64,000 nt of DNA from Pseudonocardia alni (GTDB taxonomy: Bacteria > Actinomycetota > Actinomycetes > Mycobacteriales > Pseudonocardiaceae): contig NZ_PHUJ01000003.1 in assembly GCF_002813375.1 (NCBI RefSeq), forward strand, positions 3,162,001 through 3,226,000, in the 5' to 3' direction. The translations under genes and the position numbers were made by a program. How positions within the stretch are numbered: position 1 is the first letter of the stretch; each line of letters opens with the position of its first letter. The notes under the pieces were generated by a model. The model was not told where the DNA came from and did not search any database. It saw nothing but the letters and a program-made list of their open reading frames with translations. Positions 25,562-64,000 of the stretch are shown here, piece by piece.

Positions 25562-27433
<1,872 letters not shown>

Positions 27434-45310: not shown

Positions 45311-45381
45311 GCGGATGTAGTTCAATGGTAGAACATCAGCTTCCCAAGCTGAATACGCGGGTTCGATTCCCGTCATCCGCT
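45311..45381 (+). tRNA. tRNA-Gly (anticodon CCC)
   Basis: A cloverleaf is evident. The acceptor stem GCGGATG pairs with CATCCGC; the D arm is GTTC/GAAC; the anticodon stem TCAGC/GCTGA encloses TTCCCAA, giving anticodon CCC; the T arm is CGGGT-TCGATTC-CCG with one end mismatch. The discriminator base is T and CCA is not encoded. The CCC anticodon reads GGG codons. Confidence 0.95.
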
Positions 45382-45388
45382 CAGAACA

Positions 45389-49837: not shown

Positions 49838-50176
49838 TCAGCCGTCACGCCGGCGCACGACCGACGGCGGGGCCTTCCGCCGCCACGCCTCCTCGACGAG
49901 CTCAGCGAGCTGCCCCGCGTCGACCCGGTCGAGGTCGACGAGGATCGAGCCGTGGCCGTCGTAGTGCGGGGTCGTGAAGTACGCCGGGTCGCCCGACGCG
50001 AGCAGCGCCTCCTTCTCCTCGAGCGAGCACATCAGCACCAGCCCGCCCTCGGCCTCGGTGCGCAGCCGGGCGAAGCCCGTGCCACGGACCTTCAACGACG
50101 GCGTCCGGTACCAGGTCGACTCCTCGACCTCCGGCAGCCCGGACCCGATCCGCACCACGTCGTCCCAGCTCGGCAT
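49838..50176 (-). CDS. MmcQ/YjbR family protein
   Basis: A 112-residue protein starting MPSWDDVVRIGSGLPEVEES and containing TWYRTPSLKVRGTGFARLR, SLEEKEALLASGDPAYFTTP and HYDGHGSILVDLDRVD, the CyaY-like fold of MmcQ/YjbR proteins. Some are annotated as DNA-binding; actual function is unknown. It sits between the hydrolase and panE on the same strand with short gaps. Confidence 0.85.
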   Translation of the reverse strand: MPSWDDVVRIGSGLPEVEESTWYRTPSLKVRGTGFARLRTEAEGGLVLMCSLEEKEALLASGDPAYFTTPHYDGHGSILVDLDRVDAGQLAELVEEAWRRKAPPSVVRRRDG

Positions 50177-50219
50177 GGGGCCATGGTGCCCGCGGCGGGC
50201 GCTGCCCGTCGTGGAGGAA

Positions 50220-50942
50220 TCAGACCAGGTGGGCCGCGAGGAACCGGTCGACGGCGGCCCGGCCGTCGGCGACGTGCGGCTCGACCTTCCACTGCTCGAC
50301 CAGCTCCGCGCCCGGCGCGAGCCCGGCGAGACGGCGCGACACGGGTTCCGGGTGGAAGTCGTCGATCCCCATCAGCACCAGCCACGGCGTCGCGACGTGG
50401 GCGAGCGCCTCGTCGGGAACGGAGTACAGCATCCCGCCGCCGCCCCACATGTTCGTGCGGAACGCGGCCCAGTCGTCGTCGGGGACCCCGGGGTGGTCGG
50501 CCTCGATCCCGGCGCGCCACTCGTCGAACTTCCCCTCGAACAGGTGCTGGTTGTCGGCGCGGCCGATGGGCTGCAGCGCGACCGCGGCCCGGACGCGTTG
50601 CGGCGCGGTGACCAGCAGGTTCGCGATGAAGGCGCCGCCGATGCACATGCCGAGCACCGCGCACTCGTCGACGCCGAGGTGGTCGAGCAGGGCGAGCTGG
50701 TCGGCGGTGTAGGTGTCCCAGCCGTCGCTGCCGTGGACCTCGGCGACCGAGGACCCGGCGTTGCGCTGGTCCATCGCGATGACGCGGTACCGCTGCGCGA
50801 GGTGGGTGACCGGGTCCCAGGGGGCGTTGCCCCAGGCCGCGATCGTCGAGTTCATGCCGCCCGGCGCCAGCAGCAGGACCGGGAACCCCGTGCCGTGCTC
50901 CTCGTAGTGCAGGGTCACACCGGGGCGCTCGAAGGAGGGCAT
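50220..50942 (-). CDS. Alpha/beta hydrolase with Cys in the nucleophile elbow
   Basis: A 240-residue alpha/beta hydrolase: oxyanion region LLLAPGGMNSTIAAW, MDQRNAGSS, nucleophile elbow VLGMCIGGAFIA, and the late acid and His regions (VLMGIDDFHPEP, VEPHVADGR). The elbow has Cys where most hydrolases have Ser (GxSxG). A Cys nucleophile is known in dienelactone hydrolases, but size and other motifs resemble general esterase/lactonase-type proteins. Substrate unknown. ATG 50942. Confidence 0.82.
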   Translation of the reverse strand: MPSFERPGVTLHYEEHGTGFPVLLLAPGGMNSTIAAWGNAPWDPVTHLAQRYRVIAMDQRNAGSSVAEVHGSDGWDTYTADQLALLDHLGVDECAVLGMCIGGAFIANLLVTAPQRVRAAVALQPIGRADNQHLFEGKFDEWRAGIEADHPGVPDDDWAAFRTNMWGGGGMLYSVPDEALAHVATPWLVLMGIDDFHPEPVSRRLAGLAPGAELVEQWKVEPHVADGRAAVDRFLAAHLV

Positions 50943-50951
50943 GGCCCGAAA

Positions 50952-51776
50952 CTAGGCCACCCGCGGGGGAGTCCGCTTCTCCGGACGGCGCCGCGCCAGG
51001 ATCGAGGTGCCGTAGACGACGAGTGCCAGCCCGAGCAGCAGCAGCCACCACAGACCGGGGCGGACGGTGTCGTCGAGCAGGGTGATGCCGACCAGACCGG
51101 GAACGACGACCTGGGTGACCATGTACAGCGCGGTGACCGTGGAGACGTCGCCGAGCTGCAGCGCGCGGGCGTAGTTGTACAGGCCGGTCAGGGCCATCCC
51201 GACCAGGATGTACACGAGCGGCTCGCGCAGCAGGCTCCCCAGGTCCACACCGTCGGAGACGTGCATCGCGCGGATGCAGACCGAGCCGCCGCCCAGCCCG
51301 AGCCCGGCGAGCACCGCCGACGGCCACGGCTTGGTCGAGTTCGCGATCGCCAGCGTCACCCCCATGATCGCGACGAGCGCCGCGATCAGGACGGCGACGG
51401 TCGTACCGTGGCCGGTCAGGGCCTGCTTGCGCTCGGTCCCCGCGCTGCCGGCGACGAACGCGAGCCCGAGCATGCTGGCGCCGATGGCGAGCCGGTGCAC
51501 CGGCCGCAGCCACTCGCCGCGGAAGTAGCGGGCGTACAGGGCGGTCATCGCGATGGCCCCGGCGAGCGTCGCCTGCACCGCGAAGATGGGGATGAACTGC
51601 AGCGCGACGACCATGCAGAGCCAGGTGACGATGTCCATCGCGATCCCGCCGAGGAACCGGGGGCGGGCCAGGACGGCGCTGGTGCGCCCGCCCTGGTCGG
51701 CCGCGTCGGCCTGGAGGATGGCGGCGACGGTGCTGCAGAGCATCGCGAACACCGCGAAGAGCATGCCGATCAGCAC
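50952..51776 (-). CDS. DMT/EamA-like transporter
   Basis: A 274-residue membrane protein with eight or nine helices, beginning MLIGMLFAVFAMLCSTVAAI and containing FAVQATLAGAIAMTALYARY, the short Glu/Trp loop FRGEWLRPVHRLAIG, and a second repeat (LYMVTQVVVPGLVGITLLDD). It matches the DMT-superfamily proteins (DUF803/NIPA-like or EamA) often annotated in actinomycetes. Substrate unknown. GTG 51776. It ends nine bases before the hydrolase start and is likely co-transcribed with it. Confidence 0.78.
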   Translation of the reverse strand: MLIGMLFAVFAMLCSTVAAILQADAADQGGRTSAVLARPRFLGGIAMDIVTWLCMVVALQFIPIFAVQATLAGAIAMTALYARYFRGEWLRPVHRLAIGASMLGLAFVAGSAGTERKQALTGHGTTVAVLIAALVAIMGVTLAIANSTKPWPSAVLAGLGLGGGSVCIRAMHVSDGVDLGSLLREPLVYILVGMALTGLYNYARALQLGDVSTVTALYMVTQVVVPGLVGITLLDDTVRPGLWWLLLLGLALVVYGTSILARRRPEKRTPPRVA

Positions 51777-51843
51777 GGGCGAGCCCGGGTCAGGGCACGG
51801 GCGGCATGCGGGGTGATCGACACCGGCCGATTGTGACGTACCG

Positions 51844-52179
51844 CTACCGGGTGCCGGCCGGGCGGGCGTCCGACGGAGCGGGCCGCTGCTCGGGCAGCGC
51901 CGCGGGCATCTCGAAGAAGCCGCTCATCAGCCCGCTGCCGGGCTGCTCGTCACGTGTACCGGCGGCGGCCTGCCAGGGGGACGTGCCGCCCTGGGTCGCA
52001 CGGCGCTGCGCCAGCAGGGCCCGCGGGCGCTCGGTGAGGACAAGGATGCCGACCGTGAGGGCCACCCCCACCAGCAGCGGCCCTCCGACCACCAGGATGG
52101 GCCAGCCCACCACGACATAGGCGAGCACCAATGCACCCGCCGCCATGCCGATGACCGCCCCCGCCAACCGCGTCACCAC
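51844..52179 (-). CDS. Small two-helix membrane protein
   Basis: A 111-residue protein. Two N-terminal helices (RLAGAVIGMAAGALVLAYVV and ILVVGGPLLVGVALTVGILV) are followed by a polar cytosolic tail (TERPRALLAQRRATQGG). No family recognised. GTG 52179 or the adjacent GTG 52176 is the start. The 281 bases upstream, to the Hsp70-like stop at 52461, contain no gene I can support. Confidence 0.6.
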   Translation of the reverse strand: MVTRLAGAVIGMAAGALVLAYVVVGWPILVVGGPLLVGVALTVGILVLTERPRALLAQRRATQGGTSPWQAAAGTRDEQPGSGLMSGFFEMPAALPEQRPAPSDARPAGTR

Positions 52180-52460
52180 GCGCCCCTCTCACACCGTGCC
52201 CGAACCGGGACGACCAGTGTTTTACCACGTCGGAGGGGGTGGACAGGGGCGACGCGACGCGGTGGTGGTCACACCTTCGGGCACGGCCGTATCGCATGGT
52301 GCATGGGGCCGAGCCGGCGTGGGGGCTCCCGTGTCCACGCCGGCCCGGCGGTCCGAATCATCCCGCCCCGGGGTCCGGGCGGGACGGGGTGGGGGTCACT
52401 CGGCGCTGTCGTCGCAGCGCAGAGGGTGATCGGTGACCGATTCCCTGTCCCACAGGAAGA

Positions 52461-54512
52461 TCACGCAACCGCACCCGCGGCCGGGGTGGTCGACGTCGGC
52501 GCGGGGGCCGTGGTCGTCGGGTCCGGGACCGGGGTGGTCGGGTCGGTGGCGGGCGGGGTGGTGACCGGCGGCGTGGTGACCGGCGGGGTGCTGGTCGAGC
52601 CCTCCTTCGCCGGGGTCGTCGGCGCCGGGGTGGTCGGCTTCACCGGGGTCGTCGGCGCCGGAACCGGAGCCGGGCCCGGAGCCACCGGAGCGGGAGCCGG
52701 GGGGACGGCCGCGACCGGAGCGGCGGCACCGGCGGCGGGGCGGGCCGCCGTACCCCCGGTGGCCGCGCCACCCGAGGCACCGGCGCCACCGGCGGCGGCG
52801 TGCCTCCCGCCCACGGGGGCGCCCGCGGCCGGACCGGCGGCGACGCCGGCGGCCGGGGCGGCGCCCGGGGCGACCGGGGCCGGCGCGACGGCGGGTGAGC
52901 TCAGCACGGGCGCCGCGCTCAGCTCACCGATCCCGGGGCTCGTCGTGGGCCAGAACAGCAGCGCACCCGCGATGGCAGCGGCACCGGCGAGACCACCGGC
53001 ACCGACCACCAGGCGCTGCCGGGTGACCGTGGCGCGACGGGCGGTGGCCGGGGCGTCCCGGGTGACCAGGGTGTCCGGGGCGGGCCGCTCCGGGCGGACG
53101 GCGGACGGCGCGGGCGGCTGTCCGGCCCCGAGGACCGAGGTCCGTGCGGGGGCGGGGGGCGGCGCCGTACGGGGGCGGGGGACCGCGGTCAGCGGGCCGG
53201 TCGGCGGCTCCGGGTCGAGCAGCGCGACGGCCGTGGCGGCCGCGGCGGGCCGCTCGGTCCGCGCGGTCCGCTCCCGCTCACCGCGGGTCGGCCACGCCGG
53301 CGCGTTGCGGTCGGTCATGCCGGTGCGGTCGGTGCGCTCGGTGGCCTCCGGCCCGGGCCGGTCCCACGGGCTGCGCCCGGCCGGGTCGACGGGCTCGCGG
53401 GGCGCGGGGACACCGGTCAGCGGTGCCATCCGCACACCGGGCCAGGAGGTCCCGGCCCCCGGTGCGACGGCCAGTGCGGCACCGCGGGCGGCGTCGGCCA
53501 CCGGGTCCGCGACGACGGCGACCGGGCGGCCCAGCGCCGCCGAGACCGCCTGCACCACGACCGGCATCCGCGCGGCACCGCCGGCGAGCAGCACCTCGGC
53601 GTCGGGGGCGGCGGCGACGACGTCCTGCACCAGGTCGGCGACCGGCTCGAGCAGCGGGCGGGTGAGCTCGTCGAGGTCGGAGCGATGGATCCTCACCGCG
53701 GTCAGCAGGCCGGGCATCTCCACCCGGACGGTCGCGACGGTGTCCCGGGACAACAGCTGCTTGGCGGCGCGGCACTCGTCCCGCAGGGCGGTCAGAGCGG
53801 CGACGGTCCGCGGGTCGTCGGGGTCGAGCGCGTCGAACGCGGCAGCCGTGGCCGGGGAGGAGGACCGGACGAAGGCGAACACCGCGTCGTCGACGTCGGC
53901 GCCACCGGTCCGGCAGCTCAGCGTGCGACCGACGGCGTCGGGCAGCACCCCGGGTGCGGCCGCGGCCAGTACGGTCGCGGTGGTCCCGTTGCCCCCCAGG
54001 TCGACGACGGCGAGCGGCCCCCCGGCCGGCACGACGGCGCGGTGGGCGAGCGCGACGGCCTGCGGCGCGGTCACCAGGGAGACGGTCAGCCCGCGGCGAC
54101 GCAGTGCGGCGGCCAGCAGGTCGCGCTTGTGGCGGCCCCAGCCCACCGGGCAGGTGACCCCGATCCGCGACGGCGGGCCGCCGTGCCGGGTGGACACCTC
54201 GTCGACCAGGACACGCACCAGCCGGGCGCACAGGTCCTCGGCCGCGTAGGCGTAGCCGCCCAGCGACAGCGGGGTCGGGTCCCCGACCCGGTCGAGGAAG
54301 CCGCGTGCGACGCGGTCCGGCTCGGCCGGGGCCCGGCGACGGGCGGGCTCACCGCACAGCAGGTCACCCCCGGGCGTCGCGACGAGCACCGCCGGGAGCA
54401 CGTCGCTCCCGTCGCGGCCCCCCAGCCGCACGGGCTCCGCGGCACCGCCCGTGCGCAGCACGGCAGCGGTCACCGAGGTCGCCCCCAGGTCGATCCCGAG
54501 CAGGTACGACAT
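52461..54512 (-). CDS. Membrane-anchored Hsp70-like protein without substrate-binding domain
   Basis: A 683-residue protein. Residues 1-350 form an Hsp70/actin-type nucleotide-binding domain (LLGIDLGATSVTAAVL, LAVVDLGGNGTTATVLAA, VLLAGGAARMPVVVQAV). The DnaK-type linker and substrate-binding domain are missing. A disordered charged region (350-500) leads to one membrane helix (about 501-523, RLVVGAGGLAGAAAIAGALL) and an outside Ala/Pro/Thr-rich tail of 160 residues. ATG 54512 has GGGGGAG upstream; GTG 54515 is too close to it. It is divergent from the iniB-like genes, so it may be a stress-sensing or scaffold partner of that system. Confidence 0.85.
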   Translation of the reverse strand: MSYLLGIDLGATSVTAAVLRTGGAAEPVRLGGRDGSDVLPAVLVATPGGDLLCGEPARRRAPAEPDRVARGFLDRVGDPTPLSLGGYAYAAEDLCARLVRVLVDEVSTRHGGPPSRIGVTCPVGWGRHKRDLLAAALRRRGLTVSLVTAPQAVALAHRAVVPAGGPLAVVDLGGNGTTATVLAAAAPGVLPDAVGRTLSCRTGGADVDDAVFAFVRSSSPATAAAFDALDPDDPRTVAALTALRDECRAAKQLLSRDTVATVRVEMPGLLTAVRIHRSDLDELTRPLLEPVADLVQDVVAAAPDAEVLLAGGAARMPVVVQAVSAALGRPVAVVADPVADAARGAALAVAPGAGTSWPGVRMAPLTGVPAPREPVDPAGRSPWDRPGPEATERTDRTGMTDRNAPAWPTRGERERTARTERPAAAATAVALLDPEPPTGPLTAVPRPRTAPPPAPARTSVLGAGQPPAPSAVRPERPAPDTLVTRDAPATARRATVTRQRLVVGAGGLAGAAAIAGALLFWPTTSPGIGELSAAPVLSSPAVAPAPVAPGAAPAAGVAAGPAAGAPVGGRHAAAGGAGASGGAATGGTAARPAAGAAAPVAAVPPAPAPVAPGPAPVPAPTTPVKPTTPAPTTPAKEGSTSTPPVTTPPVTTPPATDPTTPVPDPTTTAPAPTSTTPAAGAVA

Positions 54513-54753
54513 CACTGCTCCCCCCTCGTCGAACCGGCACGCCGGCGTGGTCCTCTCCGAGACCCATCGACGGGGGCCGCCCCGGTGTTAGCCCGTGCGG
54601 CGCAGCAGTTCGAGGTTGGGGACCGATCCCCTAACGGCCCCCCTACGGACCCGGAGCGATCCCCGATGGCCGGATCCAGCGGCACCCCTAGCTTTCTCGT
54701 CATCACCGGCCGACACCGCGACCGGTACCCACCTGACAGCCCCGGAGGCAACC
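54513..54753. promoter_or_regulatory. Divergent promoter region of the hsp70-like and iniB-like genes
   Basis: A 241-base intergenic region. It contains a perfect dyad GGGGA-CCGA-TCCCC at 54618-54631 and C-rich repeats around it (CCCCTAACGGCCCCCCTACG, GCGATCCCCGATGG, CACCCCTAGC). A good ribosome site CGGAGG precedes ATG 54754. The repeated CCCCTA-type elements are candidates for an activator site, such as one for the LuxR-type regulator at 60065-62665. Confidence 0.4.
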
Positions 54754-55602
54754 ATGGCCGGCCGCGATCTCTCACTCGTCGAGTTCGTCAAGATCATCCT
54801 CGGGCTCGGCCCGGACAAGGACGAGAACATCGAACTGCGCGACTGGTTCCTGAAGGACCCCGACGCCGCGCTCGAGTACCACGGTCTCGGCAACCTGACC
54901 GCCGAGGACGTCCGCGACGCCGCCGTCCTGCTCCAGGACAACGACACCGTGTCGTTCGACCGCAGCTACGACACCGGCTTCGACTGGGACCACGGCAACG
55001 CCGGCTGGGCCTGGAAGGCCGGCTCCGAGGGCCACCACGAGGGCGGCCACAAGCACGGCGCGGAGCACGAGAAGGTCCACGTCAAGGACAACTTCTACGA
55101 GTACCACGTCAACGACCGGGACACCGTCGTCGACAACTCGATCAACCAGAACGTCGACACCGACGGCGGCGACTTCCGCCAGACGATCGAGACCAACTCG
55201 GTGACCGCCTCCGGCGACGGCGCCGTGGCCGCCGGCCGCGACATCGAGGATTCGACCATCACCACCGGCAACGGCAACGCGGTCGGCAACGGCAACGCCG
55301 TGGTCAACGGCGACGACAACCAGGTCGCCTTCGGCGACGGCTCCTCGGCCGACTCCTACGGCGACATGACCGCCGACGACGGCGGCGCCGTCGCCATCGG
55401 CGGCGGCAACGCCAACGGCGACAACTCGGTGAACGGCTCCTTCAACGAGGAGACCACCACGACCACGACGACGAACGAGACCAGCTTCGAGGACTCGTTC
55501 AACACCACCATCGACGACTCGGTGGAGAACACCACCACCGACAGCGGCAACACGAACATCGGCAACGGCCTCGAGGCGAACGTCGACCTCGACATCGCCT
55601 GA
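54754..55602 (+). CDS. IniB-like repeat protein, copy 1
   Basis: A 282-residue acidic protein. The N-terminal IniB domain (residues 1-75) reads SLVEFVKIILGLGPDKDENI and GLGNLTAEDVRDAAVLLQDN, then TVSFDRSYDTGF. A His/Gly/Lys-rich linker follows, then 150 residues of imperfect Asn/Asp/Gly repeats (NSINQNVDTDGGDF, ITTGNGNAVGNGNAVVNGDD, SSADSYGDMTADDGGAVAIG) and a Thr/Ser-rich tail. The repeats suggest an extended beta structure. In mycobacteria iniB precedes the dynamin-like iniA and iniC, as here, and the operon responds to cell-wall inhibitors. No signal peptide is seen. Confidence 0.82.
   Translation: MAGRDLSLVEFVKIILGLGPDKDENIELRDWFLKDPDAALEYHGLGNLTAEDVRDAAVLLQDNDTVSFDRSYDTGFDWDHGNAGWAWKAGSEGHHEGGHKHGAEHEKVHVKDNFYEYHVNDRDTVVDNSINQNVDTDGGDFRQTIETNSVTASGDGAVAAGRDIEDSTITTGNGNAVGNGNAVVNGDDNQVAFGDGSSADSYGDMTADDGGAVAIGGGNANGDNSVNGSFNEETTTTTTTNETSFEDSFNTTIDDSVENTTTDSGNTNIGNGLEANVDLDIA
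55291..55414 (+). repeat. 124-bp block nearly identical to 56215-56338
   Basis: Bases 55291-55414 and 56215-56338 (offset 924) differ at only one position (55368 G versus 56292 C), while the flanking coding sequence differs at many positions. The block encodes the central Asn/Asp/Gly repeat part of both IniB-like proteins. Recent duplication or gene conversion is likely. Confidence 0.9.
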
Positions 55603-55622
55603 TCCGACTCCCGTCGTCAACC

Positions 55623-55653
55623 GAGCGGGCCGGACACCGGCTCCGGCCCGCTC
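55623..55653 (+). terminator. 12-bp hairpin between the two iniB-like genes
   Basis: Arms 55623-55634 and 55642-55653 (GAGCGGGCCGGA/TCCGGCCCGCTC) pair perfectly around a 7-base loop. Probably a terminator or attenuator of the first iniB-like transcript. Confidence 0.75.
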
Positions 55654-55716
55654 ACCCCGCCACCACCGTCTTCCGTCGCCCGCCCGAGCGCGACGGCACC
55701 CCCTGAGGAGAGCGCC

Positions 55717-56526
55717 ATGTCCGCCGAGAAGACCCTGATCCAGTTCATCCTGGACCTGCTGAAGGACCCGAAGCTCCTGGCCGAGTTCAAGGACGACCCC
55801 CAGGGCATGCTCGCCCAGTGCGGCCTGTCCGACGTCTCCGCCGAGGACGTCCGCGACGCGATCGTCCTGGCCCAGGACAACGACGAGGTCTCCTTCGACC
55901 GCGACTACAACACCGGCGGCGGCCACGGCGGCGGCCACCACCACACCCCGCCGCCGCCGCCCGTGCACCACGGCGAGGACCCGGTCAAGTACATCGACAA
56001 GTACGTGACCAACAACCACTACACCTACAACGTCGACGACCGCGACACCATCGTCGACAACTCGATCAACCAGAACATCGACACCGGCGGCGGCGACTTC
56101 CGCCAGGACATCGACACCAACTCCGTCGTCGCGTCCGGCGACGGTGCGGTGGCCGCCGGCGACGACATCCGCGACTCGACCATCACCACCGGTGACGGCA
56201 ACGCGGTCGGCGACGGCAACGCCGTGGTCAACGGCGACGACAACCAGGTCGCCTTCGGCGACGGCTCCTCGGCCGACTCCTACGGCGACATCACCGCCGA
56301 CGACGGCGGCGCCGTCGCCATCGGCGGCGGCAACGCCACCGGTGACGACTCGGTGAACGACTCCTACAACTCGTCGGAGACCACCACCACCGACGAGACC
56401 ACCACGTCGTTCGAGGACTCGTTCAACACCGACGTCGACAGCTCGACCTCGACCGTCACCGAGGACAGCGGCAACGTCAACGTGCTCAACGACGCCGACC
56501 TCGACGTCAACGCCTCGCTGCTCTGA
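55717..56526 (+). CDS. IniB-like repeat protein, copy 2
   Basis: A 269-residue paralogue of the preceding gene. The IniB domain is closer to the usual form: KTLIQFILDLLKDPKLLAEF and GLSDVSAEDVRDAIVLAQDN, then EVSFDRDYNTGG. A His/Pro/Gly linker, an Asn/Asp/Gly repeat region, and a Thr/Ser/Glu-rich end with NVNVLNDADLDVNASLL follow. GAGGAG precedes ATG 55717. Keeping two copies with different linkers but nearly identical cores suggests two forms of one structural element. Export route and location are unknown. Confidence 0.82.
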   Translation: MSAEKTLIQFILDLLKDPKLLAEFKDDPQGMLAQCGLSDVSAEDVRDAIVLAQDNDEVSFDRDYNTGGGHGGGHHHTPPPPPVHHGEDPVKYIDKYVTNNHYTYNVDDRDTIVDNSINQNIDTGGGDFRQDIDTNSVVASGDGAVAAGDDIRDSTITTGDGNAVGDGNAVVNGDDNQVAFGDGSSADSYGDITADDGGAVAIGGGNATGDDSVNDSYNSSETTTTDETTTSFEDSFNTDVDSSTSTVTEDSGNVNVLNDADLDVNASLL

Positions 56527-56592
56527 TCCTCGACACCCTGACGAGAAATCGTCCCTGCTCCGCCCGCGAGCAGTAGGATCGACTGCACGGCC

Positions 56593-56634
56593 CATCGGCC
56601 CCGGCCACCCTCACGTGGGTGACCGGGGCCGATG
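56593..56634 (+). terminator. Hairpin between iniB-like copy 2 and the iniA-like gene
   Basis: Arms 56593-56604 and 56623-56634 (CATCGGCCCCGG/CCGGGGCCGATG) pair perfectly, with an inner CACCC/GGGTG pair. A TAGGAT -10-like box lies just upstream (56574-56579), so the hairpin could be either the terminator of the iniB unit or a leader hairpin of a separate iniA transcript. Confidence 0.7.
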
Positions 56635-56691
56635 ACGTTGGTGTATCCATGACAGCGACGCGACGAGCGGTGACCGCACCGCTCCGGAGCG

Positions 56692-58539
56692 ATGGGGGGC
56701 GCAACGCACGTGGCGGTACCGGAGGCGGTCGCGCTGGTCGACCTCGCCCTCAAGGCGGTCACGGCCTACGACCGTCCCGACCTCGCTCCCCGGCTGCGCC
56801 AGACCAGGACCAGGCTGTCGGACCCGGTGGTCCGGGTCCTCGTGGTGGGCGAGTTCAAGCAGGGCAAGAGCCAGCTCGTGAACGCCCTCGTGAACGCCGC
56901 CGTCTGTCCCGTCGACGACGACATCGCCACCGCCGTGCCGACCCTCGTCCGCTTCGGCGAGGAGACGTCGGTGACGCTGGTCCGGGAGGTCGCCGGCGCC
57001 GACGGGGCCGTGGCCGAGAAGGCCGAGCGGACGGTCGTCGGGTTGGACGAGCTCGCGGACCACGTGTCCGAGGGCGGCAACCCGGGCAACCGCGCCGGCC
57101 TGACCCGTGCCGAGGTGACGCTGCCCCGCAAGCTCCTGCAGAGCGGGCTGGCACTCGTGGACACCCCCGGGGTCGGTGGCCTCGGGTCGGCCCACGGTGC
57201 GGCCACGATGTCGGCCCTGCCCACGGCGGACGCCGTGCTGCTGGTCTCCGACGCCAGCCAGGAGTACACCGCTCCGGAGCTGGAGTTCCTGCAGGCGGCG
57301 CGCAAGCTGTGCCCCAACGTCGCCTGCGTCGTCACCAAGACCGACCTCTACCCGCACTGGCGCCGCATCGTGGAGCTGGACGAGGGTCACCTGCGGACCG
57401 CCGGGATCGACGCCCGGCTGCTGCCGGTCTCCTCCGCACTGCGGCTGCACGCGGCCCGTACCCAGGACCTCGACCTCATCGCGGAGTCCGGCTTCCAGGC
57501 GCTCACCAGCTTCCTGCTGCGCAAGGTCGTCTCCGCCGCCGACGACCTGGACCGCCGTTCGACAAGCCAGGACGTTCTGGTCACCTGCCAGGCGCTCGAG
57601 TCGACGATGCGTGCCGAGCTCATGTCGCAGAACGACCCGGAGAAGGCCGGGCAGCTCGCCCGTGAGCTGGAGTCGGCCCGCTCGCGCGTCGACGGGCTGC
57701 GACAGCGGTCCGCACGCTGGCAGACCACGCTGAACGACGGCGTCGCCGACCTCATCGCCGACATCGACTACGACCTGCGCGACCGGCTGCGGGCGGTCTC
57801 CCGCGACGCCGAGCAGCTGCTCGAGGACGCCGACCCGGCCGACATCTGGGAACAGTTCGCCGAGTGGTTCCACAAGCAGGTCGCCCACGCCGTCGCGCAG
57901 AACTTCGTGTGGACCACCGAGCGGGCCCGCTGGCTGGCCGAGCAGGTCGCCGACCACTTCGCGGAGGCCGTCGACGTCACGCTGCCCGAACTCCGCGTGG
58001 CCGGCGGGTCGGTGGCCGGCCTGGTGGACCCGCTGGACATGCCCGCGGACGAGAAGTTCGGCGTCGGCCAGAAGCTCTTCGTCGGCGCCCGCGGTGGCTA
58101 CGGCGGCATGCTGATGCTCGGCCTGGCCTCGACCGTCGCCGGGTTCGCTCTGCTCAACCCGGTCTCGGTCGGTGCAGGCCTGCTGTTCGGCGCCAAGACC
58201 GTGCGCGACGAGAAGAAGCGCATGAAGCAACGGCGCCAGGCCGAGTCGAAGAACGCGGTGCGCCGCCACATCGACGAGGTCACCTTCCAGGTCGGCAAGG
58301 ACTCGCGGGACAACCTGCGCCGGATCCAGCGCGACCTGCGCGACCACTTCACCACCGTCGCCGACGAGCTGTCCGACGCGTTGAAGGAGTCGGTCTCGGC
58401 CGCCCAGACCGCCCTGAAGGACGACGCCTCGCGGCAGAAGCGCGTCGCGGACCTGGAGGCCGAGCTGAAGCGGGTCTCCGGCCTCGCCGAGCGGGCCCGC
58501 GCGCTGGCCGCGGCGGCCGGGGCGGAGGCGTCCGCGTGA
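56692..58539 (+). CDS. IniA-like dynamin-family GTPase
   Basis: A 615-residue bacterial dynamin-like protein. The GTPase domain has G1 GEFKQGKS (residues 53-60), G3 DTPGVGG and G4 TKTD. Long helical bundle segments follow. A hydrophobic paddle at about residues 462-500 (GGMLMLGLASTVAGFALLNP, then SVGAGLLFGAKTV) would insert into membrane, then a charged coiled coil. Mycobacterial IniA is a membrane-remodelling GTPase induced by cell-wall drugs. ATG 56692 is taken; GTG 56710 is an alternative. The stop overlaps the iniC-like start by four bases. Confidence 0.88.
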   Translation: MGGATHVAVPEAVALVDLALKAVTAYDRPDLAPRLRQTRTRLSDPVVRVLVVGEFKQGKSQLVNALVNAAVCPVDDDIATAVPTLVRFGEETSVTLVREVAGADGAVAEKAERTVVGLDELADHVSEGGNPGNRAGLTRAEVTLPRKLLQSGLALVDTPGVGGLGSAHGAATMSALPTADAVLLVSDASQEYTAPELEFLQAARKLCPNVACVVTKTDLYPHWRRIVELDEGHLRTAGIDARLLPVSSALRLHAARTQDLDLIAESGFQALTSFLLRKVVSAADDLDRRSTSQDVLVTCQALESTMRAELMSQNDPEKAGQLARELESARSRVDGLRQRSARWQTTLNDGVADLIADIDYDLRDRLRAVSRDAEQLLEDADPADIWEQFAEWFHKQVAHAVAQNFVWTTERARWLAEQVADHFAEAVDVTLPELRVAGGSVAGLVDPLDMPADEKFGVGQKLFVGARGGYGGMLMLGLASTVAGFALLNPVSVGAGLLFGAKTVRDEKKRMKQRRQAESKNAVRRHIDEVTFQVGKDSRDNLRRIQRDLRDHFTTVADELSDALKESVSAAQTALKDDASRQKRVADLEAELKRVSGLAERARALAAAAGAEASA

Positions 58540-60014
58540 GTGCGCTGACCGACCAAACCCGCGCGCTGCTGCGCCGCACCCTGGACGCCTACGGGGACTC
58601 GCCGCAGGCCGCCGGGTGGCTGCGCCACCACCTCGACCGGTTCGACGAGCCGCTGCGCGTCGCGATCGCGGGCAAGGTCAAGGCCGGCAAGTCCACACTG
58701 CTCAACGCCCTGGTCGGCGAACGGATCGCCCCCACCGACGCGGGCGAGTGCACCCGCATCGTCACCTGGTACGCGGACGCGCCCGCCCCGGGCGTTCGGA
58801 TGCACCTGCGCTCCGGCGCGGACCGCCCCCTCACCCTGGCCCGGCGCGACGGCGCGCTGCAGATCGACCTGCAGGGCGCCCGGGTGGAGGACGTCGACCG
58901 GCTGCACGTCGACTGGCCGTCGCAGCACCTGCGGCGCACCAACCTCATCGACACCCCCGGCATCGGGTCCCTGACCGCCGACGCGGCCGGCCGGGCCGGG
59001 GAGTTCCTGACGCCGGAGGACACGCCGTCGCCCGCCGACGCCGTCGTCTACCTGATGCGTCACCTGCACGCCGGTGACGTGCGGTTCCTGGAGGCCTTCC
59101 ACGACCGCGGCGTCGCCCGCGCGACCCCCGTGAACACCATCGCGGTGCTGTCCCGCGCCGACGAGATCGGCGTCGGCCGGCTCGACGCGCTGATCTCCGC
59201 GCGCCGGATCGCACGGCGCTACCGCGGCGACGACAAGCTACGCGGGCTGTGCCAGACCGTCGTCGCCGTCGCCGGACTGCTCGCCGAGACCGCCCGCACC
59301 ATGCGGCAGGACGAGTACGTCGCGCTCACCGAGCTCGCGGCGCTGCCGCGGGCCGACGTCGAGGCGCTGTTGCTCTCGGCCGACCGGTTCGGGCGCACCG
59401 AGCTCGACCGGCCCGACTCCGCCACCCGGATCGCGCTGCTGGAGCGGTTCGGCCTCTTCGGGGTCCGACTGGGGACGACGCTGATCCGGCAGGGCGTGAA
59501 GGACCCGACCGCGCTGGCCGACGACCTGGTGCGCCGCTCCGGCCTCGACGAGCTGCGCTCAGTGCTCGACACCCAGTTCTCCGAGCGCCGCGACCTGCTC
59601 AAGGCCCGCTCCGCGCTGCTCGCCGTCGACCTCGTGCTGACCCGCGAGCCCCGCCCGGCGACGGCCGCGCTGCGTGCCGAGGTGGAGCGGATCCTGGCCG
59701 GGGCGCACGAGTTCGTCGAGCTGCGGGCGCTGGCCGACCTGCGCGCCGGCAAGATCGTGTTCCCGCCCGAGGCGCTCGCCGACGCCGAACGACTGCTCGG
59801 CGGCGAGGGCGGCTCGGCGGCGGCCCGGCTCGGGCTCGACGGTGCCGCGGGTCCGCGCGAGGTCCACGACGCCGCCTCCGAGGCGCTGCGGCGCTGGCGG
59901 CGGCGGGCGGAGAGTCCGCTGACCGGGCGGGCGTCGGCGGAGGCCGCGCGGATCGTGGTGCGGTCCTGCGAGGGACTGCTCGCCGAGGCGTCCCGCACGC
60001 ACGCGCACCACTGA
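58536..60014 (+). CDS. IniC-like dynamin-family GTPase
   Basis: A 492-residue partner GTPase. G1 GKVKAGKS (residues 46-53), G3 DTPGIGS, and SRADE in place of the usual TKxD-type G4. The C-terminal half is helical without an obvious membrane segment, so it probably acts with the IniA-like protein, as fused or paired bacterial dynamins do. GTG 58536 overlaps the iniA-like stop (GTGA). It ends 50 bases before the convergent regulator gene. Confidence 0.87.
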   Translation: MSALTDQTRALLRRTLDAYGDSPQAAGWLRHHLDRFDEPLRVAIAGKVKAGKSTLLNALVGERIAPTDAGECTRIVTWYADAPAPGVRMHLRSGADRPLTLARRDGALQIDLQGARVEDVDRLHVDWPSQHLRRTNLIDTPGIGSLTADAAGRAGEFLTPEDTPSPADAVVYLMRHLHAGDVRFLEAFHDRGVARATPVNTIAVLSRADEIGVGRLDALISARRIARRYRGDDKLRGLCQTVVAVAGLLAETARTMRQDEYVALTELAALPRADVEALLLSADRFGRTELDRPDSATRIALLERFGLFGVRLGTTLIRQGVKDPTALADDLVRRSGLDELRSVLDTQFSERRDLLKARSALLAVDLVLTREPRPATAALRAEVERILAGAHEFVELRALADLRAGKIVFPPEALADAERLLGGEGGSAAARLGLDGAAGPREVHDAASEALRRWRRRAESPLTGRASAEAARIVVRSCEGLLAEASRTHAHH

Positions 60015-60064
60015 AAGATGTGGACGGCGGCTACGTCGGCTCGATCCTGCCCTGACCGGGCGGG

Positions 60065-62665
60065 TCAGCCGCGGTCGCCCAGGATCCGGCGGAGCTCGTC
60101 GAGCAGCTCGCTGCGGCCGCCCACCCCGAGACGCTGACGCATCCGGGCCACGTGGTGCTCGACGGTCTTCGCCGAGATGAACAGCGCCTCACCGATCTCG
60201 CGCTGGGTGCGCCCCTGCACGACGAGCTCGGCGACCTCCAGCTCGCGCTCGGACAGCAGACCCGACCCGGACGGTTCCGGGGCGGCCTCGACGGGCGCCG
60301 GGGCCGCGGCGGCGGGCTCCTCCGTGACCGGGCCGAGCTCCTCCGCGAGGGGCGGGAGGGTCCCCTGGCGCAGGTCCGTCCCCGCCGCCTGCAGCGCCCG
60401 CGCGCAGGCCAGCAGGGCGGACACCGCGCGCCGGTCCCCGGTCCGCAGTGCCGCCTGCCCGGCGAGGCGACCGCCGTCGAAGGACAGGCCGACGGCGTGC
60501 AGCCCGCGGGCGGCGGCCTCGACCTCGGCCGCGTCGACCCGGTCCTCCAGCACGCCCACCCAGTGCGGGGCCGCCGTCGCCATGGCGTGGGCGAAGCGGC
60601 TGCCGCAGGCGGCGCTCTGCAGCTCCTCGGAGCGGGCGCGGGCGGCCTCGACGTCGTCGGTGAGCACCGCGGCCTGCAGCCGCGCCCAGTGCAGCGGGGC
60701 GGCCCACAGCGCGGGCCGGCCGAGCCGGTCGAGCAGCGCGTCGGCCTCGGCGAGGTGCGGGGCCACCCAGCTCTCCTCCCGCAGCCGCGACGCCGCGGTC
60801 ACCAGCTCCCCGAGCGGCTGCAGCACGTAGAGGTCGACCGGGTGCCGGACGATCGCCTGCCGCGCCCGCGTCCAGGACCGCATCAGGGCCCCGAGGTCGG
60901 ACTGGCGGCGGGCGATCGCGACCTGCAGCGCGGCGGCGAGGAACTCGTCACGCGGTTCGAGGGGGTCGTCGCCCGCGTCGACAGCGGCGAGCCGCTCCGA
61001 CGCCGGGCCGGTCGCGCCGCGCAGCAGCGCGATCCAGCCGAGCAGCAGCCGGTGCCGGGCCCGGGCGGGCGCCCCGCCGAGCCCGGTCCGCAGGGCGCGG
61101 TCCAGCACGGACGCGGCGACGTCGAACTCCCCGGTGTGCACGGCCACCAGCGCGGCCAGCGCGGCCGGGGTGTCGGGCAGCAGCGCGGCGCCGTGCGCGG
61201 CCTCCAGCAGACCGGCGGCGCGGGCCAGGCCGGACAGCGCGGCGGTCGGGGAGCCCTCGACCGAGTCGAGCATGCCGCGGGCGGTGAGGTCGTCGGCGCC
61301 GTCCACGAGGGTGGGCGCGCGGCCGGCGACGAACCCGGAACCGTCGCCGTCGACCCCCACGACGGCGCGGGCCTCCTCCAGCGCCCCGGTCCCGATCAAC
61401 ACGGGCACGGCCGCCGCGGGCGGGCGCTCCCCGGACACCGCCGCGGTCCACCGGTACAGCTCGGCGCTGCGTGCCAGCAGCCCCCGCCGGGCGAGGACGG
61501 CGGCCGCGACCGACCCGGCGCGGACGGCGTCCTCGGCCTCGACGGCGTCGGTCGCGGACAGCACCGAGTCCGCGTGCCCGAGCGCGCCGTCGAGGTCCCC
61601 GGCGACCAGGTGGGCCTGCGCGCGGTGCGCGGCGACGGTCAGCGGGGGCGTCCCCGCGGCGACGGCCTCGGCGTAGAACCGGACCGCATCCGGGCTCTCC
61701 GCGCGGCCCGCCTCGGCCGCGGCGGCCCGGAACACCGCGGCGGCGCGCTCCCCGGTGGCCCCGGACCCGCGCAGGGTGCGGGCGACGGCGAGCACGCTCC
61801 CGCCACGGTCGAGCTCGATCTCGGCGAGGTGGCGGCGCAGCTCGGCCCGCCGGGCCGGCGCGACCCGGGTGCGGATCGCCTCGGCGACCAGCGGCACGAC
61901 CCGCCCGTCGGGGGTGCAGAGCCCGGCGGCGACGGCCCGGCCGGACAGCTCGTCGAGCTCGGCGACCTCGGCGCCGACGCCGATGCCGGCCGCGTCGGAG
62001 ATCCCGAGCAGCGGGACGAGCACCTCGCCGTCGACGGGGGCGCCGAGCGCGAGCGCGGTGACCAGCTCGACCACCCGCGGGTCCTCGGCGTCGACGGCGT
62101 AGCCGATCTGCTCGGCGAGCTGCGGCGGCACCGGACCGCCGACCCGTCCGTGGGCGAGCAGCCGGTCGACCAGCACCGGGGCCCCGGCGGTGCGCTCGGC
62201 GACGACCCGGACGGCCTCGTCGGAGATCCGGACCCCGGCGACGCGGGCGGCCCGGGCGGCGATCCCGGCGGCGTCGAGCGCGCCCAGGACCAGCGGCGGC
62301 GCGGCGGCGGCCAGCGTCGCGCCGAGCCGGGCCAGCGCGCGGCTGCGCGGCCACGGACGGAACGCGACGACCAGCCGGGCGCCCGGACGGCCCGCGCGCC
62401 CGCGCAGGTCGGCGAGCTCGTCGTCGCCGAGCTCGTGGGCGTCGTCGACGACCGTCACGTCCTGCCCGGCGCCGGCCTCGGTCCACACCCGGTCCAGCTC
62501 GCGCAGCACGGTCGACTTACCCGCACCGGCGGGGCCGGTGACGGCCACCAGGCGCGGTGCGTCCGGCTCCTCGGCGACGGCCCGGACCAGCGCGACCGCG
62601 GCGGGGGCCCCGGCGAGCGGGCCGGTCGACGCGGCGGGCGTGGGGGACGTCGTCGGTGCCGCCAT
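60065..62665 (-). CDS. Large LuxR-family AAA regulator (IniR-like/LAL)
   Basis: An 866-residue STAND-type regulator. Walker A GPAGAGKS (residues 44-51) and a Walker B-like VTVVDDAHELGDDE lie in the N-terminal ATPase. About 500 residues of Ala-rich TPR-like helices follow, then a C-terminal LuxR helix-turn-helix (LSERELEVAELVVQGRTQRE through ISAKTVEHHVARMRQRLG). In M. tuberculosis a similarly built regulator, IniR (Rv0339c), lies near iniBAC and controls it. Here it is convergent to the iniC-like gene, so it is the natural candidate regulator of this locus. ATG 62665. Confidence 0.85.
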   Translation of the reverse strand: MAAPTTSPTPAASTGPLAGAPAAVALVRAVAEEPDAPRLVAVTGPAGAGKSTVLRELDRVWTEAGAGQDVTVVDDAHELGDDELADLRGRAGRPGARLVVAFRPWPRSRALARLGATLAAAAPPLVLGALDAAGIAARAARVAGVRISDEAVRVVAERTAGAPVLVDRLLAHGRVGGPVPPQLAEQIGYAVDAEDPRVVELVTALALGAPVDGEVLVPLLGISDAAGIGVGAEVAELDELSGRAVAAGLCTPDGRVVPLVAEAIRTRVAPARRAELRRHLAEIELDRGGSVLAVARTLRGSGATGERAAAVFRAAAAEAGRAESPDAVRFYAEAVAAGTPPLTVAAHRAQAHLVAGDLDGALGHADSVLSATDAVEAEDAVRAGSVAAAVLARRGLLARSAELYRWTAAVSGERPPAAAVPVLIGTGALEEARAVVGVDGDGSGFVAGRAPTLVDGADDLTARGMLDSVEGSPTAALSGLARAAGLLEAAHGAALLPDTPAALAALVAVHTGEFDVAASVLDRALRTGLGGAPARARHRLLLGWIALLRGATGPASERLAAVDAGDDPLEPRDEFLAAALQVAIARRQSDLGALMRSWTRARQAIVRHPVDLYVLQPLGELVTAASRLREESWVAPHLAEADALLDRLGRPALWAAPLHWARLQAAVLTDDVEAARARSEELQSAACGSRFAHAMATAAPHWVGVLEDRVDAAEVEAAARGLHAVGLSFDGGRLAGQAALRTGDRRAVSALLACARALQAAGTDLRQGTLPPLAEELGPVTEEPAAAAPAPVEAAPEPSGSGLLSERELEVAELVVQGRTQREIGEALFISAKTVEHHVARMRQRLGVGGRSELLDELRRILGDRG

Positions 62666-62771
62666 CCTCGTCCGCCCCTCCCGTCGCCCGATCGGGTCGC
62701 CCGATCGGGGACGGCCGAGGCTATCGGGTGCGGTGTCCGGTTCCCCCGCCGGACCCGGCAGGATCACCGGA

Positions 62772-63404
62772 GTGCGTGACCACGTGTGGGCGATCGTGCT
62801 GGCGGGCGGCCGGGGGCTCCGTTACGGCCGGCTGAAGCAGCTCGACAAGCTGGCCGGGTCCCGGCTGGTCGACCACACCGTCGCCGCCGCCCGGCGCACC
62901 TGTGACCGGGTCGCGCTGGTGCTGCCGTCCGGGGTGGACTGGGACGGCGAGCCGGTCGACGCGCTCGCCGTCGGCGGGGACCACCAGTCGGAGTCCCTGC
63001 GGGCCGGGCTGGCCGTCGTGCCCGCCGAGGCGGGGGTCCTGGTTCTCGCCGACCCGGCGCACCCGCTCGCCGCCGACCGGATCTTCACCGAGGTGGTCGA
63101 GGCCGTGCGGGCGGGCGCCGACGGGGCGGTGCCGGTGGTCCCGCTGCTGGAGGTGGTGCAGCGGGTGCGCGACGGCGTCGTCGTCGACACCCTCCCCAAG
63201 CAGGACGCGGTGGTCACGCAGTCGCCGCAGGCGTTCCGCGCGGACGTGCTGCGTGCCGCGCACGCCGACGCGCCCCGGCCGGTGGAGAACTCGGGGATGC
63301 TCGCCGCGCTCGGCCACCGCGTGGTGACGGTGCCGGGGGACCCGGCGAACCTGCACGTCGCAACCCCGGAGGACCTGGCCGTCGTCCGGCGCCTGGTCAG
63401 ATGA
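62772..63404 (+). CDS. IspD-like nucleotidyltransferase
   Basis: A 210-residue GT-A type nucleotidyltransferase resembling 2-C-methyl-D-erythritol 4-phosphate cytidylyltransferase. The N-terminal loop WAIVLAGGRGLRYGRLKQLD has the GxGxR...KQ pattern. QSPQAF is similar to the QTPQ motif, and VENSGMLAALGHRVVTVPGD to the end region. The usual HDAARP is ADPAHP, losing the Arg and His of the active site, so substrate or activity may differ from IspD. GTG 62772 with AGGA upstream. It is divergent from the LuxR gene and overlaps the following convergent gene by eight bases. Confidence 0.75.
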   Translation: MRDHVWAIVLAGGRGLRYGRLKQLDKLAGSRLVDHTVAAARRTCDRVALVLPSGVDWDGEPVDALAVGGDHQSESLRAGLAVVPAEAGVLVLADPAHPLAADRIFTEVVEAVRAGADGAVPVVPLLEVVQRVRDGVVVDTLPKQDAVVTQSPQAFRADVLRAAHADAPRPVENSGMLAALGHRVVTVPGDPANLHVATPEDLAVVRRLVR

Positions 63405-64000
63405 GCGTGCCGACGTCCTGGGCGACCAGGTCGTCGGTGGCCCGTTCGACGACGGCGGCGATCGTCATCGACGGGTTGCAGGCGGCCGTCGTACCGGGCA
63501 TCAGCGACCCGTCGAGCACGTAGAGGCCGCGCTGGCCCCGCACCCGGCCCGCCACGTCGCAGACCGTGCCGATGCAGGCCCCGCCCAGCGGGTGCCAGGT
63601 GGTCGGCACCGCGTAGGTGGTGTCGAGGAAGGTGCCCCGCACCCCGGTGATGCGCCCCATCCTCTCGTGGATGCGCGCGGTCAGGGTGGCGTCGCCGTCG
63701 AGCGGCCAGTCGACGACACCCTCCTGCCGGACCGGGTCCCAGCCCATCCGGCCGCGGCCGGCGCTGACGCCGTAGCCGACGAGCATCGTCGTGGTGCGGC
63801 CGAGGCCGAGCGGCAACGGCGGCAGCGACGCCTGGATGACGGTGTTGGCCGTGGCCGGGTCCGCCCAGTCCTTCGTCCCGAACACCACCGGGCCGCCCTG
63901 GATCGCGCCGAAGTCCTCGACCAGGGAGTTCCAGGTGCAGATCCGGTCGCCGTTGGTGCCCCAGTTCTCGCCGAGCGCGTCGGGCAGGTCCGGGACCGTG
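63397..64000 (-). CDS. GMC oxidoreductase/cholesterol-oxidase-type flavoenzyme (C-terminal part)
   Basis: Only the last 201 codons are in the window; the frame runs off the right edge. ENWGTNGDRICTWNS, TTMLVGYGVSAGRGRMGWDP, WHPLGGACIGTVCDVAGRV and GLYVLDGSLMPGTTAACNPS are typical of the substrate and FAD-closing regions of GMC oxidases and cholesterol oxidase homologues. The HPLGG His and the NPS Asn are the expected catalytic pair. It is convergent with the IspD-like gene. The substrate is probably a sterol or other alcohol. Confidence 0.85.
   Translation of the reverse strand, partial: TVPDLPDALGENWGTNGDRICTWNSLVEDFGAIQGGPVVFGTKDWADPATANTVIQASLPPLPLGLGRTTTMLVGYGVSAGRGRMGWDPVRQEGVVDWPLDGDATLTARIHERMGRITGVRGTFLDTTYAVPTTWHPLGGACIGTVCDVAGRVRGQRGLYVLDGSLMPGTTAACNPSMTIAAVVERATDDLVAQDVGTLI

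What the first reader, a model, noticed from the sequence alone, without database searches (positions are those of the whole stretch)
52461..62665. Expanded iniBAC-type envelope-stress locus with an anchored Hsp70-like protein
Seen: a divergent Hsp70-like membrane protein, two IniB-domain repeat proteins, two overlapping dynamin-like GTPases and a convergent LuxR/AAA regulator form one continuous block of about 10 kb. Known: in M. tuberculosis iniB-iniA-iniC responds to cell-wall inhibitors, IniA remodels membranes, and a LuxR-type IniR regulates it. Inference: this genus has an enlarged version in which an ATP-binding anchor and two repeat proteins accompany the dynamin pair, perhaps a membrane-repair or envelope-scaffolding machine. 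The Hsp70-like component and the duplicated IniB are, to my knowledge, not part of the described mycobacterial operon.
Basis: partly seen in the sequence, partly recalled or inferred. Interest (0 to 1): 0.8.

Follow-up and report, generated by a model that had tools for sequence, protein, structure and literature searches.

The report
Bacterial envelope-stress locus with Hsp70-like partner
This stretch of a Pseudonocardia genome holds a version of the mycobacterial drug-stress gene set iniBAC, and an Hsp70-like gene in it proves to be a nearly constant part of that set in the actinobacteria sampled.

Summary
Window 52461-62665 (Pseudonocardia) encodes an Hsp70-fold membrane protein (HspL), two IniB-type proteins, an IniA-type and an IniC-position dynamin, and an IniR-type regulator. 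The reading needs revision. It is not a genus-specific enlargement: in evenly drawn genome samples HspL lies in 109 of 110 fetched dynamin loci that also carry IniB or IniR, in several gene orders, so it looks ancestral. HspL precedes iniR in tandem in 110 of 173 HspL-bearing loci and diverges from iniB in 128. Of 129 divergent regions 123 carry CCCCTA/CCCCGATG boxes; dinucleotide shuffles give 26.1 on average. HspL also accompanies dynamin pairs where no IniB or IniR was detected. It lacks DnaK's substrate-binding part, and key ATPase residues are gone in several lineages, this one included, while the window domain stays under purifying selection. Best mechanism (inferred): a nucleotide-sensing or pseudo-ATPase scaffold that places the Ini dynamins at the membrane; main rival: membrane sensor for IniR. 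Prior art: Boot 2017 mentions in one sentence a dnaK-like gene by M. smegmatis iniR, and iniB*. New variant of a known kind.

The parts
52461..54512 (-). hspL: Hsp70-fold nucleotide-binding domain (aa 1-349), Pro-rich linker, one hydrophobic (transmembrane) segment (aa 501-521), Pro/Thr-rich tail (aa 522-683, 39% P+T)
53466..54512 (-). Hsp70-type nucleotide-binding domain; DLG and the GG of the adenosine motif kept, residues at the catalytic K/E/T/D places are L/A/G/T
   Evidence: (AlphaFold2 pLDDT 92)
52950..53012 (-). transmembrane segment of HspL (hydropathy only)
   Evidence: (relatives)
54513..54753 (.). divergent control region hspL|iniB1
54628..54690 (+). conserved boxes: CCCCTA at 54628, 54640 and 54685, CCCCGATG at 54661 (candidate IniR sites); the only such strings in window 50001-64000
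54754..55602 (+). iniB1: IniB-type N-terminal head (below NCBIfam cut-off), acidic Asn/Gly/Asp-rich tail
55623..55653 (+). hairpin after iniB1 (z -2.17)
55717..56526 (+). iniB2: IniB N-terminal head (helical, confident) and repeat tail (low confidence as a monomer)
56593..56634 (+). hairpin between iniB2 and dynA (z -4.50), kept with covariation in relatives
56692..58539 (+). dynA: IniA-type dynamin-like GTPase (P-loop GEFKQGKS, DTPG, TKTD)
58536..60014 (+). dynC: second dynamin-like GTPase (IniC position; P-loop GKVKAGKS, DTPG, SRAD)
60065..62665 (-). iniR: IniR-type ATPase/LuxR regulator (P-loop GPAGAGKS, C-terminal GerE domain), convergent with dynC

Best explanation
Shown by sequence: the block is an ini (iniBAC/IniR-type) envelope-stress locus, and HspL, an Hsp70-fold protein without a substrate-binding domain, is a standing, probably ancestral component of such loci. 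Inferred mechanism: envelope damage activates the MalT-like IniR, which binds the CCCCTA/CCCCGATG boxes between hspL and iniB1 and drives both units. HspL, anchored in the membrane here, works as a nucleotide-sensing or pseudo-ATPase scaffold: its cytosolic actin/Hsp70 fold positions the dynamin pair, with IniB as head-and-tail adaptor, for membrane remodelling or repair. ATP hydrolysis is not needed in every lineage. The hairpin between iniB2 and dynA sets a high IniB to dynamin ratio. My odds by part: about 0.95 for the locus identity, 0.9 for HspL as a conserved component, 0.45 for the scaffold role; the figure below is for the whole statement.
For: HspL in 109 of 110 fetched ini-type loci of three evenly drawn samples (genomes). 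HspL within 0.2-6.5 kb of dynA-dynC with no IniB or IniR detected in the stretch: L119, L169, L173, L181, L252, L253 (five of the six looked at gene by gene); for the genomes of L169, L173 and L181 IniR was also not found anywhere at E 1e-25. IniR occurs only in genomes that also have DynA, 61 of 61 (lists compared by eye). Boxes in 123 of 129 divergent gaps (two or more in 113) against shuffle means of 26.1 and 2.8 and 4 of 178 stretches before dynC, which are mostly coding; the composite box occurs once in the 6.0 Mb own genome, at this locus. DnaK interdomain linker pattern met in 5 of 139 Hsp70 rows, all five true DnaK by the tree. K/E/T/D complete in 66 of 132 HspL rows; yet the window domain is constrained, dN/dS 0.107 against L007 (DynA 0.123). 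IniB paralogues in 20 genomes: old distinct heads, homogenised tails, 32 of 40 tails closest to own paralogue. Hairpin at or below -30 kcal/mol in 163 of 164 iniB-dynA gaps; 10 of 17 pairs with compensatory change.
Against: No interaction, localisation or expression data here. hspL precedes iniR in tandem in 110 of 173 HspL-bearing ini loci, or 110 of the 159 with a strong IniR match in the stretch, which fits a regulatory partner as well as a scaffold. In Micrococcales only 3 of 26 hspL not divergent from iniB have a box within 300 nt upstream, so induction of hspL by IniR is not universal. Some lineages have HspL without a transmembrane segment. Against L008 and L009 the window domain is looser (dN/dS 0.34, 0.36) than DynA (0.18, 0.17). 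HspL-like genes also occur away from dynamins, including a second copy in this genome (C3:2103305-2104360). Dynamin loci without IniB/IniR lack HspL in 16 of 33 cases, several of them cut or distant.
Confidence: 0.55

Rival explanations
1. HspL is the membrane-bound sensor or gatekeeper of IniR, as MalK restrains MalT (recalled): the Pro/Thr tail or the membrane state is read outside and the nucleotide-binding fold holds or releases IniR inside.
For: hspL precedes iniR on the same strand in 110 of 173 HspL-bearing ini loci; the hspL stop lies within 250 nt of the IniR domain in 80 pairs (one of them, L126, counted although its hspL frame runs on through iniR). In Micrococcales hspL-iniR lies as a pair upstream of iniB. 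IniR is MalT-like (Boot 2017, PMC5760070, section 10 read).
Against: HspL stays near dynamin pairs where IniR is not found: L169, L173, L181, L252, L253 (stretch only); L119 and L169 have another ATPase-type gene beside hspL that was not classified. In Pseudonocardia and one mycobacterial group hspL and iniR are apart. Boot 2017 shows IniR working in M. marinum and M. tuberculosis and names a dnaK-like gene only for M. smegmatis.
Confidence: 0.3
2. HspL is a genuine chaperone that refolds IniB or dynamins under stress.
For: Hsp70 fold; best structural matches are DnaK and BiP nucleotide-binding domains, TM 0.77-0.84 by query in the 50 listed.
Against: No substrate-binding domain by Pfam and no DnaK linker; catalytic residues lost in many members.
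Confidence: 0.05
3. The neighbourhood is mere synteny: HspL stays by the dynamins by descent without functional link.
For: Conserved neighbourhoods are common between close relatives.
Against: Gene order and strand differ between Pseudonocardia, other Mycobacteriales and Micrococcales while the set stays together; shared divergent boxes.
Confidence: 0.08

Closest known systems
iniBAC operon and IniR of mycobacteria (Boot 2017 PMC5760070, sections 10, 11, 17 read; IniA structure paper PMC6715688, passages)
   Same: IniA-type dynamin with a second dynamin, IniB N-terminal domain, IniR-type regulator, extra IniB-like gene (iniB*), dnaK-like gene noted by iniR in M. smegmatis
   Different: Here two IniB-type genes of similar size with Asn/Asp/Gly tails; iniR convergent at the far end; HspL divergent from iniB1 and catalytically degenerate. 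No role for the dnaK-like gene was found in the listings and passages seen (listings, most of them capped; passages); open-access papers only
DnaK/Hsp70 chaperones
   Same: actin/Hsp70 nucleotide-binding fold
   Different: no substrate-binding domain, no interdomain linker, catalytic residues replaced, membrane anchor and Pro/Thr tail
Rv0312 / MSMEG_0692, listed in the FhaA interactome (PMC11898655, one passage read)
   Same: listed as Pro/Thr-rich, one transmembrane helix, ATP binding
   Different: that it belongs to the HspL family is recalled, not tested here; the paper does not name iniB
Paired bacterial dynamin-like proteins, e.g. Cj-DLP1/2 (PMC6104087, passages)
   Same: two dynamin-like genes side by side; membrane repair speculated there too
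   Different: the passages name an HcpA-like beta-lactamase as operon neighbour; its one 'Hsp70' is in the reference list

Membership tests
ini (iniBAC/IniR) envelope-stress locus | IniA-type dynamin | tested here: met
   residues 13-608 match 6j72, 444.6 bits
ini (iniBAC/IniR) envelope-stress locus | second dynamin (IniC) in tandem | tested here: met
   Dynamin_N 41.9 bits, 4-nt overlap with dynA
ini (iniBAC/IniR) envelope-stress locus | IniB N-terminal domain | tested here: met
   iniB2 70.4 bits over cut-off 40; iniB1 30.3, below it
ini (iniBAC/IniR) envelope-stress locus | IniR regulator | tested here: inconclusive
   NF038181 395.5 bits over model 3-825 of 827 but below the equivalog cut-off 750; in the order sample found only with DynA, 61 of 61 genomes
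ini (iniBAC/IniR) envelope-stress locus | induction by cell-wall inhibitors or trehalose through IniR | not testable with these tools
   only conserved boxes in the control region
Hsp70/DnaK chaperone | Hsp70-type nucleotide-binding domain | tested here: met
   PF00012 74.8 bits; fold match to DnaK
Hsp70/DnaK chaperone | substrate-binding domain and interdomain linker | tested here: not met
   no match beyond the nucleotide-binding domain; linker pattern absent
Hsp70/DnaK chaperone | catalytic Lys, Glu, Thr, Asp | tested here: not met
   L, A, G, T in the window protein; equivalence to DnaK numbering is recalled
MreB-type actin homologue | MreB family score above cut-off and better than Hsp70 | tested here: not met
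   MreB_Mbl 28.4 bits, just over its cut-off 27 but far below HSP70 74.8

The most novel reading that the evidence does not exclude
An Hsp70-fold protein that has repeatedly given up ATP hydrolysis is a dedicated, ancestral subunit of an actinobacterial dynamin machine for envelope repair; the iniBAC system has so far been read without one of its core pieces.
Probability: 0.45. Interest if true: 0.8.

Novelty: new variant of a known kind. Interest (0 to 1): 0.6.

Why it matters
iniBAC is a classic drug-response reporter of mycobacteria, yet how its dynamins are placed and switched is not known from the papers seen. A conserved Hsp70-fold partner, conserved control boxes and a conserved internal hairpin give a concrete list of parts to test in harmless laboratory actinobacteria. 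Loss of the ATPase residues in several lineages with the fold still constrained would make it an unusual case of an Hsp70 fold turned scaffold or sensor.

Tried and rejected
Genus-specific expansion: rejected, the same set occurs across Mycobacteriales and Micrococcales. Chaperone: no substrate-binding domain. IniB tail as a folded beta-solenoid: AlphaFold2 gave confidence under 50 for 195 of 269 residues, so no fold is claimed; the fold search had two matches, best E 3.3, a RiPP precursor. Rfam: no family in 50000-64000. The phylum-wide IniR search matched 269 of 296 genomes, only 3 over the cut-off, mostly LuxR domains; it served to find a few real IniR loci. The second HspL of this genome has no box within 300 nt upstream and no ini genes in the stretch.

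Results against the reading: of 58 hspL-profile hits not paired divergently with iniB, 43 have no box within 300 nt (two of the 58 are DnaK by the tree). A single-box pattern is not significant within the window alone (1 match, 0.33 expected). Of the 129 divergent gaps 6 have no box: L041, L044, L200, L244, L246, L247. The hairpin survey used mononucleotide shuffles, 8 per gap, and only gaps of 70-900 nt; dinucleotide controls were made for the window alone. Ini-type loci without HspL: 11 in set A, ten of them with under 5 kb upstream of dynA, but L026 has 9.1 kb; L183 in set B. L127 carries only a true DnaK; its iniR-hspL-iniB part is at the end of another contig (L128). The 132 HspL rows count one protein twice (L117 and the own-genome copy), include the long-branch row L185, leave out hits under 250 model positions, and score gaps as 'not K/E/D'; in the 21 mycobacterial rows the Glu is replaced by Asp, a mild change. 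The tree has a weak root and warns of long branches; it is used to tell DnaK from HspL, not to prove one origin. IniB comparison: 43 sequences chosen from 60 candidates plus the two of the window by length and motif. The control stretches before dynC are mostly dynA coding sequence; shuffled gaps were added as a fairer control.

Full report
What is there. The window comes from a Pseudonocardia (nearest named locus listed: Pseudonocardia sp. ICBG1293, DynA 92% identical in the best segment). The six genes are confirmed by open frames and family models: hspL 52461-54512 (-), iniB1 54754-55602 (+), iniB2 55717-56526 (+), dynA 56692-58539 (+), dynC 58536-60014 (+), iniR 60065-62665 (-). DynA is an IniA relative over residues 13-608 (6j72, 444.6 bits). 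IniB2 passes the IniB_NTERM cut-off; IniB1 does not. IniR matches NF038181 nearly end to end at 395.5 bits, below the equivalog cut-off of 750.

How constant is the Hsp70-like gene? A scan of named genomes kept the best 80 of 378 relatives of DynA. Of these, 75 carry IniB or IniR and 64 of the 75 also carry HspL; ten of the 11 misses have under 5 kb upstream of dynA. With at least 8 kb upstream, an Hsp70-type gene is present in 51 of 52. To avoid that bias DynA was sought in evenly drawn genomes: 66 of 200 of the order, 55 of 78 of the mycobacterial genus, 32 of 246 of the class. Neighbourhoods of about 18 kb were fetched and scanned with profiles that separate HspL from DnaK; loci met in an earlier sample were not fetched again. 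HspL is present in 58 of 59, 43 of 43 and 8 of 8 loci that have IniB or IniR. Dynamin loci with neither have HspL in 1 of 5 (named set), 5 of 8, 5 of 7 and 6 of 13, several of the rest being cut contigs or distant dynamins. With four Hsp70-family genes in a 6.0 Mb genome, an 18 kb stretch would hold one by chance in roughly 1% of cases (inference).

Arrangement. In the Pseudonocardia loci hspL diverges from an iniB and iniR lies convergent beyond dynC. In most other Mycobacteriales of the sample the order is iniR - hspL | iniB - dynA - dynC with hspL read before iniR. In Micrococcales it is mostly hspL - iniR - iniB - dynA - dynC on one strand. hspL precedes iniR in tandem in 110 of 173 HspL-bearing ini loci (29 of 64, 51 of 58, 28 of 43, 2 of 8) and diverges from iniB in 128 of 173. 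In a group of mycobacterial genomes hspL lies beyond dynC instead. IniR (E 1e-25) was found only in genomes that also have DynA (E 1e-50): 61 of 61; five DynA genomes have no IniR (lists compared by eye).

What HspL is. AlphaFold2 on the window domain with 27 aligned rows gives pLDDT 92, and DnaK/BiP nucleotide-binding domains are the best solved folds. There is no substrate-binding domain and no DnaK linker; the linker pattern was met in 5 of 139 rows, all true DnaK. After the domain come a Pro-rich linker, one hydrophobic segment (mean hydropathy 1.5 or more in 53 of 54 rows) and a tail often rich in Pro and Thr; several lineages of the order have a short form without it. The residues at the places of the DnaK catalytic Lys/Glu/Thr/Asp are all present in 66 of 132 HspL rows; Lys, Glu and Asp are all absent in 44 of 132, among them the window clade and all 21 mycobacterial rows, where Glu has become Asp. 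The window domain is still constrained: dN/dS 0.107 against L007, like DynA at 0.123; against L008 and L009 it is looser, 0.34 and 0.36, with DynA 0.18 and 0.17. The same genome keeps a second HspL with intact residues at C3:2103305-2104360, among what look like leucine-biosynthesis genes (read by eye) and without ini genes.

Control region. CCCCTA occurs upstream of 144 of 181 IniB heads against 1 of 150 stretches before dynC. Of 129 hspL|iniB divergent gaps, 123 hold at least one CCCCTA or CCCCGATG box on either strand and 113 at least two; 100 dinucleotide shuffles of the same gaps give means of 26.1 and 2.8, at most 36 and 7; stretches before dynC 4 of 178. In the window the four box strings found in 50001-64000 all lie between hspL and iniB1, and the composite pattern occurs once in the genome and not in its reversed control. 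One box alone is not significant within the window. That IniR binds these boxes is inferred; Boot 2017 reports a ChIP peak of IniR directly upstream of iniBAC in M. tuberculosis (section 11 read).

IniB and the hairpin. IniB2 has a confident helical head, and a long acidic Asn/Asp/Gly/Ser/Thr tail that AlphaFold2 does not fold. In 20 genomes with two IniB, heads are distinct (median identity 0.45 within a genome, 0.77 to the best in another) while 32 of 40 tails, 19 of 40 central parts and 3 of 40 heads are closest to the paralogue of the same genome, as expected if the tails assemble together (inference). Between the last iniB and dynA the best 60-nt fold is at or below -30 kcal/mol in 163 of 164 gaps and more than 8 kcal/mol below mononucleotide shuffles in 154 of 164. 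The window copy has z -4.50 against dinucleotide shuffles, and 10 of 17 consensus pairs show compensatory change in 16 sequences picked. It may bear on the higher IniB than IniA and IniC levels that Boot 2017 discusses (section 17 read).

Mechanism. The best-supported reading is that HspL is a partner of the dynamin pair, because it stays near dynamins where IniB and IniR are not detected. A scaffold or nucleotide-sensing role at the membrane is inferred from the fold, the anchor and the dispensable ATPase residues. A sensor role towards IniR is the main rival, from the hspL-iniR tandem. Neither is tested.

Prior art and novelty. Boot 2017 (PMC5760070; abstract, sections 10, 11 and 17 read; [quoted passage not shown] smegmatis iniR, and describes iniB*. 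The IniA paper (PMC6715688) holds neither dnaK nor Hsp70, nor does the 2026 HpoR paper (PMC13413693). No paper giving the dnaK-like gene a role was seen in the listings (most list only the best 10-20 of more) or passages; subscription papers are mostly missing from the library. Rv0312/MSMEG_0692, listed in the FhaA interactome as a Pro/Thr-rich one-TM ATP-binding protein (PMC11898655, one passage), is a possible family member by recall only. The finding is a new variant of a known kind: a known locus with an overlooked, nearly constant component.

Noticed in passing
window 25700-27421 (-): A full DnaK gene (637-codon frame, one of two in the genome) lies about 25 kb from the ini locus; true dnaK genes also lie near the ini locus in some related loci (e.g. 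L122, L137, L140, L196, L241).
   Followed up: partly
window 60000-60080: A stable fold (z -3.03) sits between the convergent ends of dynC and iniR, as for a two-way terminator.
   Followed up: partly
window 55717-56526: iniB2 differs from L007 at dN/dS about 1.0 (0.84 to L009), far above its neighbours, though alignment in the repeat tail is uncertain.
   Followed up: no
L119 1-1421, L169 1-1131: Two dynamin-HspL loci without detected IniR have another ATPase-type gene, perhaps a different regulator, divergent from hspL (read by eye).
   Followed up: no
L146, L148, L150, L154, L158: HspL forms without a transmembrane segment end near a similar short motif around PLDLP/PLELP (by eye), a possible docking peptide.
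   Followed up: no
L196, L204, L205, L209 and others: Many mycobacterial ini loci carry two or three HspL genes, the extra ones after iniR or after dynC.
   Followed up: partly
window 3480-3573 (-) and 45311-45382 (+): Two tRNA-Gly(ccc) predictions in one window; the first is unusually long (94 nt) and may be false.
   Followed up: no
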